Position numbers and translations under genes: made by a program
Notes under the pieces: generated by a model
Seen by the model: the letters and a program-made list of their open reading frames with translations, nothing else
The model's database searches: none
What the model was told of the DNA's origin: nothing
Origin: Candidatus Doudnabacteria bacterium
GTDB lineage: Bacteria > Patescibacteriota > JABMPQ01 > JAGQLO01
DNA: 46,275 nucleotides
Direction: 5' to 3'
NCBI GenBank assembly: GCA_020429185.1
Contig: JAGQLO010000005.1
Span: 3,341 to 49,615, forward strand
In this document: one piece after another, positions 4,220 to 46,275 of the stretch
Layout: each line of letters begins with the position of its first letter
Position numbering within the stretch: position 1 is the stretch's first letter

Positions 4220-4663
4220 ATGGCAGAAGAAGCCGTAAAGGAAACCGAAGCTACAGAAGCTACGGAAGAGAAGAAGGAAGTTGAAGTTCCAGCTGAGTTC
4301 AAGGACTTGGTGGAGCAGATCGAAAAGATGACCGTTCTCGAGCTCTCTCAGCTCGTTGAAGTCCTCGAAGACAAGTTCGGGGTATCCGCAGCTGCTCCAA
4401 TGATGATGGCTGGTGCTCCAGCTGGAGGTGGAGAAGAAGGTGGAGAAGAAAAGTCCAACTTCGACGTTGAGCTGACATCCGCAGGTGACCAGAAGATCGC
4501 TGTGATCAAGGTTGTTCGCGAGGTGACAGGTCAGGGACTCAAGGACGCAAAGGCAATGGTGGACGGTGCTCCAGTTGTTGTGAAGGAAGGCGTAGCAAAG
4601 GAAGAAGCCGACGACCTCAAGGCCAAGCTCGAAGAAGCAGGTGCAACGGTAACTCTCAAGTAG
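4220..4663 (+). CDS. rplL: Large ribosomal subunit protein L7/L12
   Basis: 147 residues, about 25 longer than usual because of an acidic N-terminal extension rich in Glu, Thr and Ala ([19 protein letters not shown]). Then come the dimerisation region ([20 protein letters not shown]), an Ala/Gly/Met hinge with Pro, and the conserved C-terminal domain ending [15 protein letters not shown]. The C-terminal domain recruits translation factors to the stalk. It lies 24 bases after rplJ and shares its promoter and leader. There is no Shine-Dalgarno. A strong terminator follows. Confidence 0.97.
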
Positions 4664-13244: not shown

Positions 13245-14786
13245 CTAGCGCATGAGCGGAGGGAGCGTGCGCAGCGTGTGCGCGATCTCCGCCACCGGAC
13301 GGTAGCCCGTCCACGCGTACAGACCGTCGATCTCCGCCGGGAGGCGGAACAGACCGTCGGCCTGAGCGTCGTGCTGGCAGTTGCCCGCGCCCTGCTCACA
13401 CAGGAGCTGGGTGGGGTTGGCCGGGACCTCGAGAGGCTCCAGGCCGTACCAGCGCGTCACCACCATGGGCGAGTTGACCGGATCGACCGTGACCTCGAGG
13501 GTCCCGTTGCCGTCCCAGCCAATGCCGAAGGTGCACATGTCACCGCGCGGCACGTTCCCGAAGGTCCGCGCCTCACCGTTCCACGTCACCGTCAGCTCAC
13601 CCGCCACCGAGATTCCGAGGGCGAATCCGCCCACACGCACGATCTCACCCGACTCCCCCGGAGGGACGTCGTGGGCGAGGGTGACCATGAGGGTGCGCGC
13701 CTGGCCGAAGCCGAGCGCGTCCTCGTAGTTCACCACGTAATCGCGCGCGTTCGGGTTGTTGCGGAAGTGGTAGCTCCCGCACACGAACCCGCTCAGCTCA
13801 CGGTTGTGCATCACCGTCTGCGCTTGCGGCAGTCGACCACCATCCTCGTGGGGCTCGAAGGAGTCCACGGACCAGCAGTCCAGGTCGAGCCCATCGGAGG
13901 GCAAGTCCTGGACACCGATCGCACCGGCCACGGCCGGCGGGATGATGCGGGCGCCGTTCAGGTGCCCGCCCGACGCGATGTCGGGGCGCCACCCAGCGTA
14001 GTGGAGGGTGAGGAGGGGATCATCGGCGAAGTTGCCGCTGCAGTTCCCATCCACACCAGCGCGCTGAACCCGCAGGTCCGACACGCCGTCCGTCCACGCC
14101 GGCTGGATGTTTCCACACGCCACCTGGGCGTCGCATACGCCATGACCGTTCGGGTCACCGAAGCCCGCGTCACAGAAGACCTCGCAGTCCTCACCGATGC
14201 AGAACTCCAGGCCGTGCAGGTCGGGGCGCGGCGTCACCCGAGGCTGGGCCTCCTGGGGCGGCTCCGGGTCCTCCGGATCCTCGGGATCAGGGTCCGGCCC
14301 GACGGGGTCCTCCGGATCCTCGGGATCCGGGTCTTCCATCGGGTCAGGGTCCTCCGGATCCTGGGGGTCCGGTTCGACGGGGTCGACCGGGTGAAAGTCA
14401 CCCGGACCAGGTGGCCCGACGCGCAGGTCTGGCGGTGCCATCACGGGGCAGCCCACGAACCGCATGCCGGTTTCGTCCGGGCCGTTCGACTCCGCGCAGA
14501 ACCCCGGGGTGTGCCGCCAGGCGGCGCAGCTGCCCGTGTCCGTGCAGAAGGCGAACTGGAAGCCCGCGGGCGCCATGCAGTCGGCGTTGACCGTGCAGGT
14601 GACGTCCGGAAGCTGCTCCGGCTCGGGGGTCGCGTCAGGGCTCTTGCCCTCGACGTCGGCCGGCTGGAACTCCGGCGTAGGCCGGACGGCCTCGGCGTTC
14701 TGGTCGACGAAGTTGCACCCGGGGAGGGCGCAACCGAGGAGGGCGGCCAAGACGGCCAGGGCGGGGAAAGTGTTCAGGAACTTCAT
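13245..14786 (-). CDS. GC-rich predicted lipoprotein with acidic DP/PEDP linker, Myxococcota-like
   Basis: 513 residues. Start at 14786 because AGGAG lies 7 bases ahead and the protein then opens with a lipoprotein signal peptide (MKFLNTFPALAVLAALLG, then CALPGC). A Cys-rich module (about residues 55-100, spaced CTVNADC and FCTDTGSC) is followed by a linker of repeated DPEDPEDP units (about 125-180). A second Cys-containing region includes EFCIGEDCEVFCDAGFGD. A long beta-rich domain includes LDLDCWSVDSFE and CTFGIGWDGNGTLEVTVDP, which resembles a carbohydrate-binding or lectin-like fold. No catalytic family was recognised. The coding region is strikingly GC-rich with codons ending in C or G, unlike its neighbours. 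Architecture and style recall Myxococcota/Bradymonadota lipoproteins, suggesting transfer; promoter and terminator look host-like. An open antisense frame over the same stretch is a composition artefact. Confidence 0.85.
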   Translation of the reverse strand: MKFLNTFPALAVLAALLGCALPGCNFVDQNAEAVRPTPEFQPADVEGKSPDATPEPEQLPDVTCTVNADCMAPAGFQFAFCTDTGSCAAWRHTPGFCAESNGPDETGMRFVGCPVMAPPDLRVGPPGPGDFHPVDPVEPDPQDPEDPDPMEDPDPEDPEDPVGPDPDPEDPEDPEPPQEAQPRVTPRPDLHGLEFCIGEDCEVFCDAGFGDPNGHGVCDAQVACGNIQPAWTDGVSDLRVQRAGVDGNCSGNFADDPLLTLHYAGWRPDIASGGHLNGARIIPPAVAGAIGVQDLPSDGLDLDCWSVDSFEPHEDGGRLPQAQTVMHNRELSGFVCGSYHFRNNPNARDYVVNYEDALGFGQARTLMVTLAHDVPPGESGEIVRVGGFALGISVAGELTVTWNGEARTFGNVPRGDMCTFGIGWDGNGTLEVTVDPVNSPMVVTRWYGLEPLEVPANPTQLLCEQGAGNCQHDAQADGLFRLPAEIDGLYAWTGYRPVAEIAHTLRTLPPLMR

Positions 14787-14799
14787 GTGGAATCTCCTC

Positions 14800-14816
14800 G
14801 CGCGCTCGCAGCGCGC
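14800..14816 (-). promoter_or_regulatory. GC hairpin touching the lipoprotein ribosome-binding site
   Basis: Inverted repeat GCGCGCT, GCG, AGCGCGC ends about two bases upstream of the AGGAG ribosome-binding sequence (14798-14794 on the minus strand). A second GCGCGC repeat lies near 14850 in the same leader. It could tune translation, or may only reflect extreme GC content. Confidence 0.4.
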
Positions 14817-14965
14817 TCCAATGAGGGGTGCGCTACGCGCGACTGAAGCGCGCGTCGCGCGCGCGGGGAACAGAAACACTCTTGCGATCACTTCTTTAGG
14901 TTGTGAAAGGTCAAGCGTTTCTAGAAGAACCACAGGGAAGAGAGTCCACCTGCAGTATGACCTAA

Positions 14966-14993
14966 AGCATACCACGTTTAGTAGACTTGTCAA
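14966..14993 (-). promoter_or_regulatory. Strong promoter of the lipoprotein gene
   Basis: Minus strand TTGACA (14993-14988), 16-base spacer, TATGCT (14971-14966). The message leader would be about 170 bases. The promoter lies in AT-richer, host-like DNA. Confidence 0.82.
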
Positions 14994-23696: not shown

Positions 23697-23723
23697 TTAG
23701 CACTCAAGTAGAGTGAGTGCTAA
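23697..23723 (+). promoter_or_regulatory. CIRCE operator of hrcA
   Basis: Exact consensus TTAGCACTC - 9 bases - GAGTGCTAA, which is the HrcA binding site. It ends two bases before the hrcA ATG, so repressor binding covers the transcription start and the start codon region. Confidence 0.97.
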
Positions 23724-26948: not shown

Positions 26949-26949
26949 A

Positions 26950-26976
26950 TTAGCACTCTCACATATAGAGTGCTAA
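26950..26976 (+). promoter_or_regulatory. CIRCE operator of dnaK
   Basis: TTAGCACTC - TCACATATA - GAGTGCTAA, exact arms. It covers the predicted transcription start, 33 bases upstream of the ATG. Confidence 0.97.
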
Positions 26977-27009
26977 TTTGTTCCAAACAACGTTATTTCA
27001 TCAAACACT

Positions 27010-30270: not shown

Positions 30271-30297
30271 TTAGCACTCAATACATAAGAGTGCTAA
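30271..30297 (+). promoter_or_regulatory. CIRCE operator of dnaJ
   Basis: TTAGCACTC - AATACATAA - GAGTGCTAA, exact arms, one base after the -10. It gives dnaJ its own HrcA control, separate from dnaK. Confidence 0.97.
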
Positions 30298-43081: not shown

Positions 43082-45673
43082 GTGCTTGCCGTCGTCGCAG
43101 AACAGCTGTCTCAGACAGGCTTCCAGCCACAAACCGAGCGGGTAATCGTCATTCCGGACGTGCCCGTCTGGCTTTTGGTAGTGCTGGTTATCGTAGCTGT
43201 GTGTGTCGGCATCGTGCTGCTTGTCATGGTGGTGAGACAGTTAAAAGCACGGCAACGACTTCCAAAATCACTCAATATGGTGTCGTTGCTAGTGACATTG
43301 CCGCGAGCCTTGAAGGATGTCGTCGAGAAAGAGAAAACAGAAGGAGAAGATAAAGACGAGCTGATCTCCATTGCGGAGACCATGTACACAAACCTCTCAG
43401 CGATCGATTCGTTTACACCTCGCTGGAGGAGAACGCTGCTTGGGAGAGATGCACTTGCACTCGAACTTGTTCTGGCTGACGGCGAGATTCGTTTTTACAT
43501 TGCCTGTTCGCGTCGACTTAAAACATTCGTAGAGCGTCAGGTACAATCGCAGTATCCCAAAAGCCAGATCGAAGAGGCGGGTGAGTATACGATTTTCGGG
43601 CCAGGCCAAGCTGTGCGCGGCTCAACGCTTCGGCTCATGAAAAAGCCAGAGTTGCCTGTAAAAACCTATCGTGAACTTGAAAGCGATCCGTTGAACGCGC
43701 TCACAAACGCCCTCGCAAAACTGCCAGACGGGTCTGGGGCCGCGATTCAATTGTTGATTCGTCCCGCTTCTGCAAAGCAGGCAAAGAAAGGGCGACAAGC
43801 AGCACTGAAAATGCAGCAAGGTCGTGGCTATGGAGAGGGTGGAGACAAACTCAGTAAGGGGCTCGAGAGCCTCAAGACGGCTGCGAAGCCGGTAAAGCAG
43901 GGTCAGTCTTCTGCTGCAGATCCAAATCAACAAAATGACACGCGTCGGCTCACTCCGTTGGAGGAAGAAACAGTTCGTGCGCTTGAGGAAAAGACAAACA
44001 AGGTTCAGTTTGAAACGAATGTGCGTGTCTTGGTGTCGGCCCCAACGGAGCAGATGGCCCAACTAGAGCTCAATGGAATTTTGTCTTCGTTTACACAGTA
44101 TAATGCGCCACGACTCAACGGGTTCAAGCAGGGAAAAGAGCGACAGCGTGCGTTAGTTACCAACTTTATTTTTCGCTACTTCAACAAGCGCGAAACGATG
44201 GTGCTCAACACGGCGGAGCTTGCTTCGATCTTCCATTTCCCAACGCGTTTCACTGAAACCCCAAAGATCTTGTGGCTTGGCTCGAAAAAGGCGCAACCAC
44301 CACTAGGACTGCCTTCGGAAGGAATTTCATTGGGAACGAATACGTATCGGGGTGTCTCTCAGGAAATACGTATCGCCAACGAAGATCGCATGCGACACTT
44401 GTATCTCATTGGTCGTACCGGTACTGGTAAGTCGACGCTGTTAGAAAACATGATCGTACAAGACATCCGTAATGGAGAGGGGCTTTGTGTGATCGACCCG
44501 CACGGAGACCTTGTTGAAAATGTGCTCCTGCAGATTCCGAAGGAGCGTGCAGAGGATGTCGTTCTATTTTCTCCTTCAGACACGGATCGTCCAGTGGGAT
44601 TGAACATGCTCGAGTTTTATAACGAAGAATCAAAAGACTTCGTTGTGCAGGAAATGATCGGCATTTTCTACAAGTTGTTCCCGCCCGAAACAATCGGTCC
44701 GCTCTTCGAGCACAACATGCGTAATGTCATGCTGACGCTCATGGCCGATCCGAACGACATGGGAACGGTGGCTGAGATTCCGCGCATGTTTACCGACGAC
44801 AATTTCCAAAAATCACGTGTGGCGAAGGTGAAGGATCCAGTGGTGCGCGCCTTTTGGGAACAGGAAATGGCTCAAACCGACAACTTCCATAAATCAGAAA
44901 TGCTTGGCTACCTGGTCTCAAAGGTGGGTCGCTTTGTGGAGAACGAAATGATGCGTAACATCATTGGGCAGGCGCGATCTGGGTTTAACGTGCAAGAGAT
45001 CATGGACCAAGGAAAGATTTTGTTGGTCAATCTTTCTAAGGGAACGGTAGGAGAAGTGAACTCAGATCTGCTCGGTCTGATTATCGTGTCGAAGTTGCAG
45101 ATGGCAGCCTTTTCACGAGCTGCGCGTCCAGAGTCTCAGCGTCGAGACTTTTTCCTCTACATCGACGAGTTCCAAAACTACACGACTGACTCGATCTCAA
45201 CCATCCTCTCTGAGGCACGAAAGTATCGACTCGGTCTTACTGTCGCGCATCAGTTCTTGGGACAGCTTGTAGGAGACAACAACGATACCAGCATTCGTGA
45301 CGCGATCTTCGGAAACGTGGGAACGATGGTAGCGTACCGCATTGGTGTTGATGACGCAGAAACATTCGCGAAAGAGTTTGAACCCGTTTTTGATGAAAAC
45401 GACGTCATCAATATCGAAAAGTTCAATGCATACGTGAAACTGATGGTGGGAGGTACAACATCGCAGCCGTTTAACATGTCGGTGCCAGCACCAGAGCGTT
45501 TGGAAACAGGTGGAAACCCAAGGCTGGCCGAAGCGATTCGTCAGCTCTCGCGTGCCAAGCACGGACGAAACAAAGCAGAAGTAGAAGCAGAAATTGCCCG
45601 ACGTGCTCAATTCGGCCGCGCGCCAGATCGAGGGCCGGCACTGGATCCTTCGTCAATGGGACCGTCCTTCTAG
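43082..45673 (+). CDS. Membrane-anchored DUF87/TraG-VirD4-like ATPase
   Basis: 863 residues from a GTG start. One N-terminal membrane segment (about 29-52, VWLLVVLVIVAVCVGIVLLV), a long alpha/beta region (about 60-430) and then a RecA-like motor: Walker A GRTGTGKST (444-452), CVIDPHGDLVENVLL, Walker B FFLYIDEFQN (690-699) and a TVAHQFLGQL segment typical of conjugative coupling proteins and FtsK/HerA-type pumps. The C-terminus is basic and polar. It could translocate DNA or protein across the membrane, perhaps linked to DNA uptake or pili, which are common in this group; no other secretion gene is in the window. An alternative is HerA-like DNA processing. It ends 31 bases before the tRNA promoter. 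Confidence 0.85.
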   Translation: MLAVVAEQLSQTGFQPQTERVIVIPDVPVWLLVVLVIVAVCVGIVLLVMVVRQLKARQRLPKSLNMVSLLVTLPRALKDVVEKEKTEGEDKDELISIAETMYTNLSAIDSFTPRWRRTLLGRDALALELVLADGEIRFYIACSRRLKTFVERQVQSQYPKSQIEEAGEYTIFGPGQAVRGSTLRLMKKPELPVKTYRELESDPLNALTNALAKLPDGSGAAIQLLIRPASAKQAKKGRQAALKMQQGRGYGEGGDKLSKGLESLKTAAKPVKQGQSSAADPNQQNDTRRLTPLEEETVRALEEKTNKVQFETNVRVLVSAPTEQMAQLELNGILSSFTQYNAPRLNGFKQGKERQRALVTNFIFRYFNKRETMVLNTAELASIFHFPTRFTETPKILWLGSKKAQPPLGLPSEGISLGTNTYRGVSQEIRIANEDRMRHLYLIGRTGTGKSTLLENMIVQDIRNGEGLCVIDPHGDLVENVLLQIPKERAEDVVLFSPSDTDRPVGLNMLEFYNEESKDFVVQEMIGIFYKLFPPETIGPLFEHNMRNVMLTLMADPNDMGTVAEIPRMFTDDNFQKSRVAKVKDPVVRAFWEQEMAQTDNFHKSEMLGYLVSKVGRFVENEMMRNIIGQARSGFNVQEIMDQGKILLVNLSKGTVGEVNSDLLGLIIVSKLQMAAFSRAARPESQRRDFFLYIDEFQNYTTDSISTILSEARKYRLGLTVAHQFLGQLVGDNNDTSIRDAIFGNVGTMVAYRIGVDDAETFAKEFEPVFDENDVINIEKFNAYVKLMVGGTTSQPFNMSVPAPERLETGGNPRLAEAIRQLSRAKHGRNKAEVEAEIARRAQFGRAPDRGPALDPSSMGPSF

Positions 45674-45703
45674 GTGACTCATTCAAAAACAGTCAAAAAG
45701 CTC

Positions 45704-45731
45704 TTGACGCTACGCGAGAACCGTGTAGGAT
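45704..45731 (+). promoter_or_regulatory. Promoter of the tRNA cluster
   Basis: TTGACG (45704-45709), 16-base spacer, TAGGAT (45726-45731), 22 bases before tRNA-Phe. Confidence 0.75.
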
Positions 45732-45753
45732 CTTCGCATGCACTTTTGAGTAT

Positions 45754-45827
45754 GCGCGTGTAGCTCAGTTGGTTAGAGCAGGTGAATGAAAATCACCTTG
45801 TCGGCGGTTCAAGTCCGTCCACGCGCA
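45754..45827 (+). tRNA. tRNA-Phe (anticodon GAA)
   Basis: Acceptor GCGCGTG / CACGCGC, D loop AGTTGGTTA, anticodon stem GGTGA / TCACC with loop ATGAAAA, T arm GGCGG TTCAAGT CCGTC (one G-U pair), discriminator A. CCA is not encoded. Confidence 0.95.
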
Positions 45828-45833
45828 GGTGTT

Positions 45834-45909
45834 GGGGAGTAGCTCAGTTGGTTAGAGCGACGACATCGTAATGTCGTAGGTCGCCGGTTCAAGTCCGGCC
45901 TCCCCACCA
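45834..45909 (+). tRNA. tRNA-Thr-like (anticodon CGT) with irregular acceptor and anticodon loop
   Basis: D arm GCTC AGTTGGTTA GAGC and T arm GCCGG TTCAAGT CCGGC are normal, and ACCA is encoded. The acceptor stem has only six pairs (GGGGAG / CTCCCC), and the anticodon stem ACGAC / GTCGT encloses eight bases (ATCGTAAT). A stem CGACA / TGTCG with a six-base loop is the alternative fold. CGT would read ACG. It may be functional or degenerate. Confidence 0.8.
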
Positions 45910-45916
45910 CATTTGT

Positions 45917-45989
45917 GGGCCTGTAGCTCAGCTGGGAGAGCGCTCGCTTTCTAAGCGAGAGGTCGGTGGTTCGAGACCGCCCAGGCCCA
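45917..45989 (+). tRNA. tRNA-Arg (anticodon TCT)
   Basis: Acceptor GGGCCTG / CAGGCCC, D loop AGCTGGGA, anticodon stem CTCGC / GCGAG with loop TTTCTAA, T arm GGTGG TTCGAGA CCGCC, discriminator A. CCA is not encoded. Confidence 0.95.
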
Positions 45990-45990
45990 C

Positions 45991-46230
45991 TGCGTCAACC
46001 CCCGCCCAAGGGTGACGCATGCTGCCGAGTTTCGGCTCGGCAGTAGCGAGGCGTGCCTCGCATGTCAGGAGCGGGAGACAACCTGCCCGACTCCATGCTG
46101 CTGGAAGTGGCACGCTCCTGACTGGCCTCCTCTTTCGTTCTTGTTCCCCATCCGCTCGCGGACATCGGGGGTAGCCATGCTCTATCTACGGAGTACATAA
46201 GGCGACAGGCACGATTGAGGAGGCCCTTTT
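45991..46230 (+). ncRNA. Candidate structured RNA downstream of the tRNA cluster
   Basis: Consecutive perfect or near-perfect hairpins: TGCGTCA / TGACGCA (45991-46019), CTGCCGAG / CTCGGCAG (46022-46043), GCGAGGC / GCCTCGC (46046-46061), then GTCAGGAGCG / CGCTCCTGAC (46064-46122) around an inner loop. A long-range GGCCTCCTC / GAGGAGGCC pair (46124-46132 with 46217-46225) encloses TCCGC / GCGGA (46151-46162) and is followed by CTTTTAATTT. No coding frame is convincing. I recognise no RNA family; an array of palindromic repeats is the alternative. ATG 46246 may start the next gene, but only ten codons are inside the window. Confidence 0.55.
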
Positions 46231-46275
46231 AATTTCTGAACGACGATGAAGGCGACGAGTGGAAAATGTAAAGAA

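What the first reader, a model, noticed from the sequence alone, without database searches (positions are those of the whole stretch)
45991..46230. Dense array of perfect hairpins after tRNA-Arg: candidate new structured RNA
Five nested or consecutive stems of 5-10 pairs occupy 240 bases, including a 9-bp long-range pair that closes a domain and is followed by a T-rich end. No known RNA family or coding frame fits. It could be a tRNA-linked RNA or a palindromic repeat array.
Basis: seen in the sequence. Interest (0 to 1): 0.6.

Follow-up and report, generated by a model that had tools for sequence, protein, structure and literature searches.

The report
Orphan hairpin array after tRNA-Arg
The 240 bases after a tRNA gene really do fold into an unusually dense row of hairpins and match no known RNA; no relative of this exact array was found, but related bacteria carry a distinct, widespread, apparently undescribed family of palindromic elements fixed to the ends of tRNA genes, and the array most likely belongs to that kind of thing rather than being a lone new RNA gene.

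Summary
Window 45991-46226 folds at -121.8 kcal/mol (z about -6), the strongest non-tRNA signal in the window, with no Rfam match and no convincing ORF. It lies 1-2 nt after tRNA-Arg(TCT), downstream of one promoter-like site; the contig ends at window position 46275. It is single-copy in its 0.9-Mb Patescibacteria-like genome. No homologue turned up in 57 relatives by BLAST, in 380 phylum genomes with a single-sequence covariance model, or in phages and plasmids, so its own covariation cannot be tested. RNase P, tmRNA and the rRNA leader were excluded. In order mates, tRNA genes are flanked by about 115-nt, two-hairpin, CGTC-tagged palindromic elements that abut mature tRNA ends and, in some genomes, start codons. 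That family covaries strongly (28/29 pairs) and was found in 39 of 380 phylum genomes. The window array shows the family's motif order (CGTC at the tRNA end, CTCCTCTT, CCCC-hairpin-GGGG, GAGGAG), rare in shuffles, but the family model does not score it significantly (2.3 bits). Best reading: a diverged or analogous tRNA-docked palindromic array, not a demonstrated new RNA class. Membership is unproven.

The parts
45704..45731 (+). promoter-like site TTGACG-16-TAGGAT upstream of the tRNA cluster; the only one in 45500-46275
   Evidence: consensus match only
45753..45828 (+). tRNA-Phe(GAA)
45833..45908 (+). odd tRNA with 8-nt anticodon loop ATCGTAAT (Thr-CGT-like)
45917..45989 (+). tRNA-Arg(TCT)
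45991..46019 (+). hairpin 1; contains CGTC at 45993-45996, 3 nt from the tRNA end
46020..46045 (+). hairpin 2 (UUCG loop)
46046..46061 (+). hairpin 3
46064..46121 (+). hairpin 4, long foot GTCAGGAGCG/CGCTCCTGAC with branched top
46124..46226 (+). domain 5, closed by GGCCTCCTC/GAGGAGGCC, two inner hairpins, followed by CTTTTAATTTCT
   Evidence: z -4.17
46127..46170 (+). CTCCTCTT...CCCC-hairpin-GGGG, the motif order of the tRNA-docked element family; only occurrence in the window
46248..46275 (+). possible start of the next gene (GACG-ATG...), cut by the contig end
   Evidence: too short to identify

Best explanation
The array is lineage-specific palindromic DNA docked to the 3' end of the last tRNA gene of a Phe-(Thr-like)-Arg operon. 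It is read through from the operon's promoter and folds as the 3' trailer of the tRNA precursor. It is the same sort of thing as, and possibly a diverged or stacked relative of, the CGTC-tagged two-hairpin elements that sit at tRNA ends in related genomes. Proposed mechanism for that family: copies enter at the gene boundary with the CGTC end facing the gene, newer copies push older ones outward, and the hairpins are harmless because tRNA ends are trimmed by processing enzymes. Shown here: the hairpins, the position, and the existence, docking and covariation of the family in relatives. Inferred: transcription, common origin with that family, mobility, and tolerance through tRNA processing.
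For: The array starts within 2 nt of the tRNA end. One promoter-like site precedes the whole unit and none lies in between. Order mate G001 has 38 model hits and G005 has 5. In 20 of 20 G001/G005 tRNA-proximal copies checked, the CGTC end is 0-3 nt from a mature tRNA 5' or 3' end, including 3' of tRNA-Arg(TCT) in G005. Family structure: 28/29 pairs have two-sided changes, 92% of cells paired, 0/500 shuffles; an independent set gives 95% and 29/29. Window array: CGTC within the first 7 nt after the tRNA occurs in 2.3% of shuffles, CTCCTCTT..CCCC..GGGG in 0.01%, and the latter occurs once in the 46-kb window, here. The closing CCTCCTC/GAGGAGG pair is what an inverted pair of such elements would give. 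In G001 tandem pairs, the tRNA-proximal copy scores higher than the distal one in 7 of 7.
Against: The family models do not recognise the array: R2 has no hit there at E<=10, and R3 gives 2.3 bits, E 1.1 in 576 nt. No member is found elsewhere in this genome. The gap between CTCCTCTT and CCCC is 12 nt here against 0-3 in the family, and the motif test was framed after seeing the sequence. CGTC is paired in hairpin 1 here but unpaired in the family.
Confidence: 0.45

Rival explanations
1. A genuine new structured non-coding RNA, made as the last member of the tRNA operon and released by tRNA 3' processing, ending at the domain-5 stem and U-run.
For: z -6, the strongest non-tRNA signal in the window. 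The + strand folds better than the - strand. Other tRNA genes of this genome are mostly followed by one terminator-like hairpin rather than such an array.
Against: No homologue in 380 phylum genomes by covariance model or in 57 relatives by BLAST. No expression data.
Confidence: 0.25
2. Cis-regulatory leader (riboswitch- or ribosomal-protein-leader-like) of the gene that begins at 46248.
For: An ATG follows about 22 nt after the last stem, preceded by GACG. In other genomes the docked elements also sit directly before the start codons of rpmA, rpsH and nusB.
Against: The gene is cut by the contig end. GGAGG lies about 24 nt from the ATG, too far for a normal Shine-Dalgarno site. No Rfam leader matches.
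Confidence: 0.12
3. A cluster of back-to-back terminator or mRNA-end hairpins with no further function.
For: tRNA genes in this genome are generally followed by strong hairpins.
Against: Hairpins 1-4 lack U-runs, and the terminator scan finds none. The other tRNA genes use mostly single hairpins with T-runs.
Confidence: 0.13
4. Leader of the rRNA operon, with the contig broken before 16S.
For: The assembly has no reported 16S hit, and a boxA-like TGCTCTATCT lies at 46180.
Against: The 16S 5' end of this genome lies on contig C15 after trmD, as in order mates.
Confidence: 0.02

Closest known systems
CGTC-tagged REP superfamily (Di Nocera et al. 2013, PMC3733652)
   Same: Palindromic repeats with an unpaired CGTC tag at one end, likely transcribed, with no dedicated transposase known. 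The Patescibacteria family found here also starts with CGTC (30/38 and 22/27 copies).
   Different: Published CGTC REPs are single 8-9 bp hairpins of 20-40 bp in high copy, reported from five phyla that do not include this one. The relatives' elements are about 115 nt, two-hairpin and docked at tRNA ends. The window array is single-copy, 236 nt, and its CGTC is paired.
RAYT-mobilised GTAG REPs / IS200-IS605-derived MITEs
   Same: Hairpin-based, non-autonomous, intergenic palindromes, often in inverted pairs.
   Different: No transposase association was tested, and the copy number in this genome is one.
Standalone tRNA-operon sRNAs and tRNA trailers (for example 3'ETS-type RNAs; own knowledge)
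   Same: Position at the 3' end of a tRNA precursor.
   Different: No sequence relation; the array is far larger and more structured.

Membership tests
tRNA-docked palindromic element family defined here (models R2/R3) | Significant covariance-model score | tested here: not met
   R2: no hit on the array; R3: 2.3 bits, E 1.1 in 576 nt
tRNA-docked palindromic element family defined here (models R2/R3) | CGTC end within 0-3 nt of a mature tRNA end | tested here: met
   CGTC at 45993-45996, tRNA end 45989; 2.3% of shuffles
tRNA-docked palindromic element family defined here (models R2/R3) | CTCCTCTT followed by CCCC-hairpin-GGGG | tested here: inconclusive
   Present and rare in shuffles, but with a 12-nt gap against 0-3 in the family
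tRNA-docked palindromic element family defined here (models R2/R3) | Several copies per genome | tested here: not met
   No R2/R3 hit in G000
CGTC/GTAG REP repeats | High copy number in the genome | tested here: not met
   Single copy
CGTC/GTAG REP repeats | Short single hairpin with unpaired tetranucleotide tag | tested here: not met
   236-nt multi-hairpin array; CGTC is paired in hairpin 1
Any Rfam family | Score at or above gathering threshold | tested here: not met
RNase P RNA / tmRNA | Missing elsewhere in the genome and matching the model here | tested here: not met
   Both found on other contigs
rRNA-operon leader | Lies before 16S rRNA | tested here: not met
   16S start lies on C15 after trmD
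New structured RNA class | Covariation across homologues | not testable with these tools
   No homologues found

The most novel reading that the evidence does not exclude
The array is a far-diverged, stacked member of a previously undescribed, phylum-wide class of CGTC-tagged palindromic elements that insert exactly at the boundaries of translation genes (tRNA 5' and 3' ends, tmRNA 3' end, start codons of rpmA/rpsH/nusB). These elements carry their own Shine-Dalgarno-like GGAG, so that insertion directly before a gene is tolerated.
Probability: 0.25. Interest if true: 0.7.

Novelty: new variant of a known kind. Interest (0 to 1): 0.48.

Why it matters
The array alone is an orphan. What it led to is a covarying family of palindromic elements fixed to mature tRNA ends in at least 36 genera of one phylum. 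If confirmed, that would be a bacterial counterpart of eukaryotic elements that target tRNA genes, in genomes otherwise thought to be streamlined, and would raise a concrete question about how tRNA precursors with such flanks are processed.

Tried and rejected
Rfam at gathering and relaxed thresholds: tRNAs only. RNase P and tmRNA: both elsewhere. rRNA leader: refuted by C15. Synteny through the upstream TraG/VirD4-like gene: the tRNA cluster is not linked to it in order mates. DNA homologues in relatives, phages, plasmids and IMG/VR exact patterns: none. A 17-nt match on C4 lies in the 3' end of a proline-rich gene and was judged chance. Single-sequence covariance model over 380 genomes: own locus only. 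Literature searches for tRNA-docked palindromes in this phylum found nothing matching; one search led to the CGTC REP paper.

Full report
What is there. Window 45991-46226 lies directly after tRNA-Arg(TCT) (tRNA end 45989), which closes a cluster of three tRNA genes. The fold of 45991-46240 has z = -6.06 on the + strand and that of 45991-46275 has z = -3.8 on the - strand. In a scan of 394 segments of 236 nt from the whole window, only a segment of the tRNA cluster had a lower z. No Rfam family matches, and the two short ORFs have no Pfam match. The window ends where the contig ends (window = G000:C40:3341-49615, contig length 49615), so the downstream gene is unknown.

What it is not. RNase P RNA and tmRNA of this genome are on contigs C11 and C4. 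The idea of an rRNA leader was tempting, because no 16S hit is reported for this assembly and the array contains a boxA-like TGCTCTATCT. But the 5' end of this genome's 16S lies at the start of contig C15 after trmD, as in four of the order mates. The array is not a dispersed repeat: it is single-copy in its genome. No homologue was found in 57 relatives by BLAST, in 380 phylum genomes with a single-sequence covariance model, or in phage, plasmid and viral collections. Covariation of the array itself therefore cannot be tested.

Surroundings. Most other tRNA genes examined in this genome are followed by one strong hairpin, usually with a T-run, as expected of intrinsic terminators. Hairpins 1-4 of the array lack T-runs, and no standard terminator is detected. 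A promoter-like TTGACG-16-TAGGAT lies upstream of tRNA-Phe and none lies between tRNA-Arg and the array, so the array is most simply read as the trailer of the tRNA operon transcript. This is an inference; there is no expression evidence.

Related loci. In order mate G001 the tRNA genes are interleaved with palindromic elements of about 115 nt in both orientations. Twelve copies (eleven from G001, one from G005) gave model R2. R2 finds 38 copies in G001, 5 in G005 and weaker ones in five further genomes, but none in G000. In all 20 G001/G005 tRNA-proximal copies checked, the CGTC end lies 0-3 nt from a mature tRNA end, 12 at 3' ends and 8 at 5' ends. One copy follows the tmRNA 3' end (G001:C6). 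With 38 copies, 28 of 29 pairs show two-sided changes and 92% of cells pair. Model R3 hits 39 of 380 phylum genomes in 36 genera. The 27 matches in the newly fetched loci, which were not used to build R3, pair in 95% of cells, and 18 of them abut a tRNA, although that alignment is fitted to the model. Several others end right at the start codon of a protein gene. By translation I read these as rpmA (L134, L154, L157), rpsH (L129) and nusB (L166); the gene names are from my own reading of the N-termini. In seven tandem pairs of G001 the tRNA-proximal copy scores higher than the distal one, which fits insertion at the tRNA boundary; the model was trained mainly on proximal copies, so this is suggestive only.

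Does the array belong? By the models, no: R2 does not list it and R3 gives 2.3 bits. By motif order there is a suggestive resemblance: CGTC 3 nt from the tRNA end, CTCCTCTT, CCCC-hairpin-GGGG, then GAGGAG. In 20,000 dinucleotide shuffles the first occurs in 2.3% and the CTCCTCTT..CCCC..GGGG pattern in 0.01%, and the latter occurs once in the 46-kb window. But the spacing allowed was set after seeing the sequence; the true gap is 12 nt, against 0-3 in the family. I therefore do not file the array as a member. I consider it most likely (0.45) to be the same kind of thing: tRNA-docked palindromic DNA that is transcribed as a trailer.

Known kinds. The nearest published kind is the CGTC-tagged REP superfamily (PMC3733652): short 20-40 bp palindromes with an unpaired CGTC at one end, reported from five phyla, without a dedicated transposase. 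The family in relatives shares the tag but is larger, two-hairpin and tRNA-docked. I found no paper describing it in the library available, which is not proof that none exists.

Noticed in passing
L121:173-1530 and 4238-4510; L111:1552-1785; L106:2097-2221; L126-L176: Phylum-wide family of ~115-nt CGTC-tagged two-hairpin palindromic elements docked at tRNA 5'/3' ends, the tmRNA 3' end and start codons of rpmA/rpsH/nusB; strong covariation; in 39 of 380 genomes sampled; no Rfam family matched in the loci scanned.
   Followed up: partly
45833-45908: tRNA gene with an 8-nt anticodon loop ATCGTAAT (Thr-CGT-like), while a normal tRNA-Thr(CGT) exists on contig C27; possible frameshift-type or decayed tRNA.
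   Followed up: no
13245-14993 (-): 582-aa ORF, about 65% GC against about 51% around it, with a lipobox-like N-terminal region and a D/P/E-rich linker; no Pfam match; looks like an acquired surface lipoprotein.
   Followed up: partly
23697-23723, 26949-26977, 30271-30297: Three CIRCE operators (TTAGCACTC-N9-GAGTGCTAA and near copies) before hrcA, dnaK and dnaJ: an ordinary HrcA regulon.
   Followed up: yes
L079 (G000:C41) 902-975: 18-bp imperfect palindrome GGCCGGCAGTCAGCTTCG...CGAAGCTGGCTGCCGGCC upstream of tRNA-Ser(GGA) in the same genome; unexplained.
   Followed up: no
L158:1603-1720: Element abuts what looks like a tRNA-Gln interrupted after the anticodon loop, possibly by an intron.
   Followed up: no
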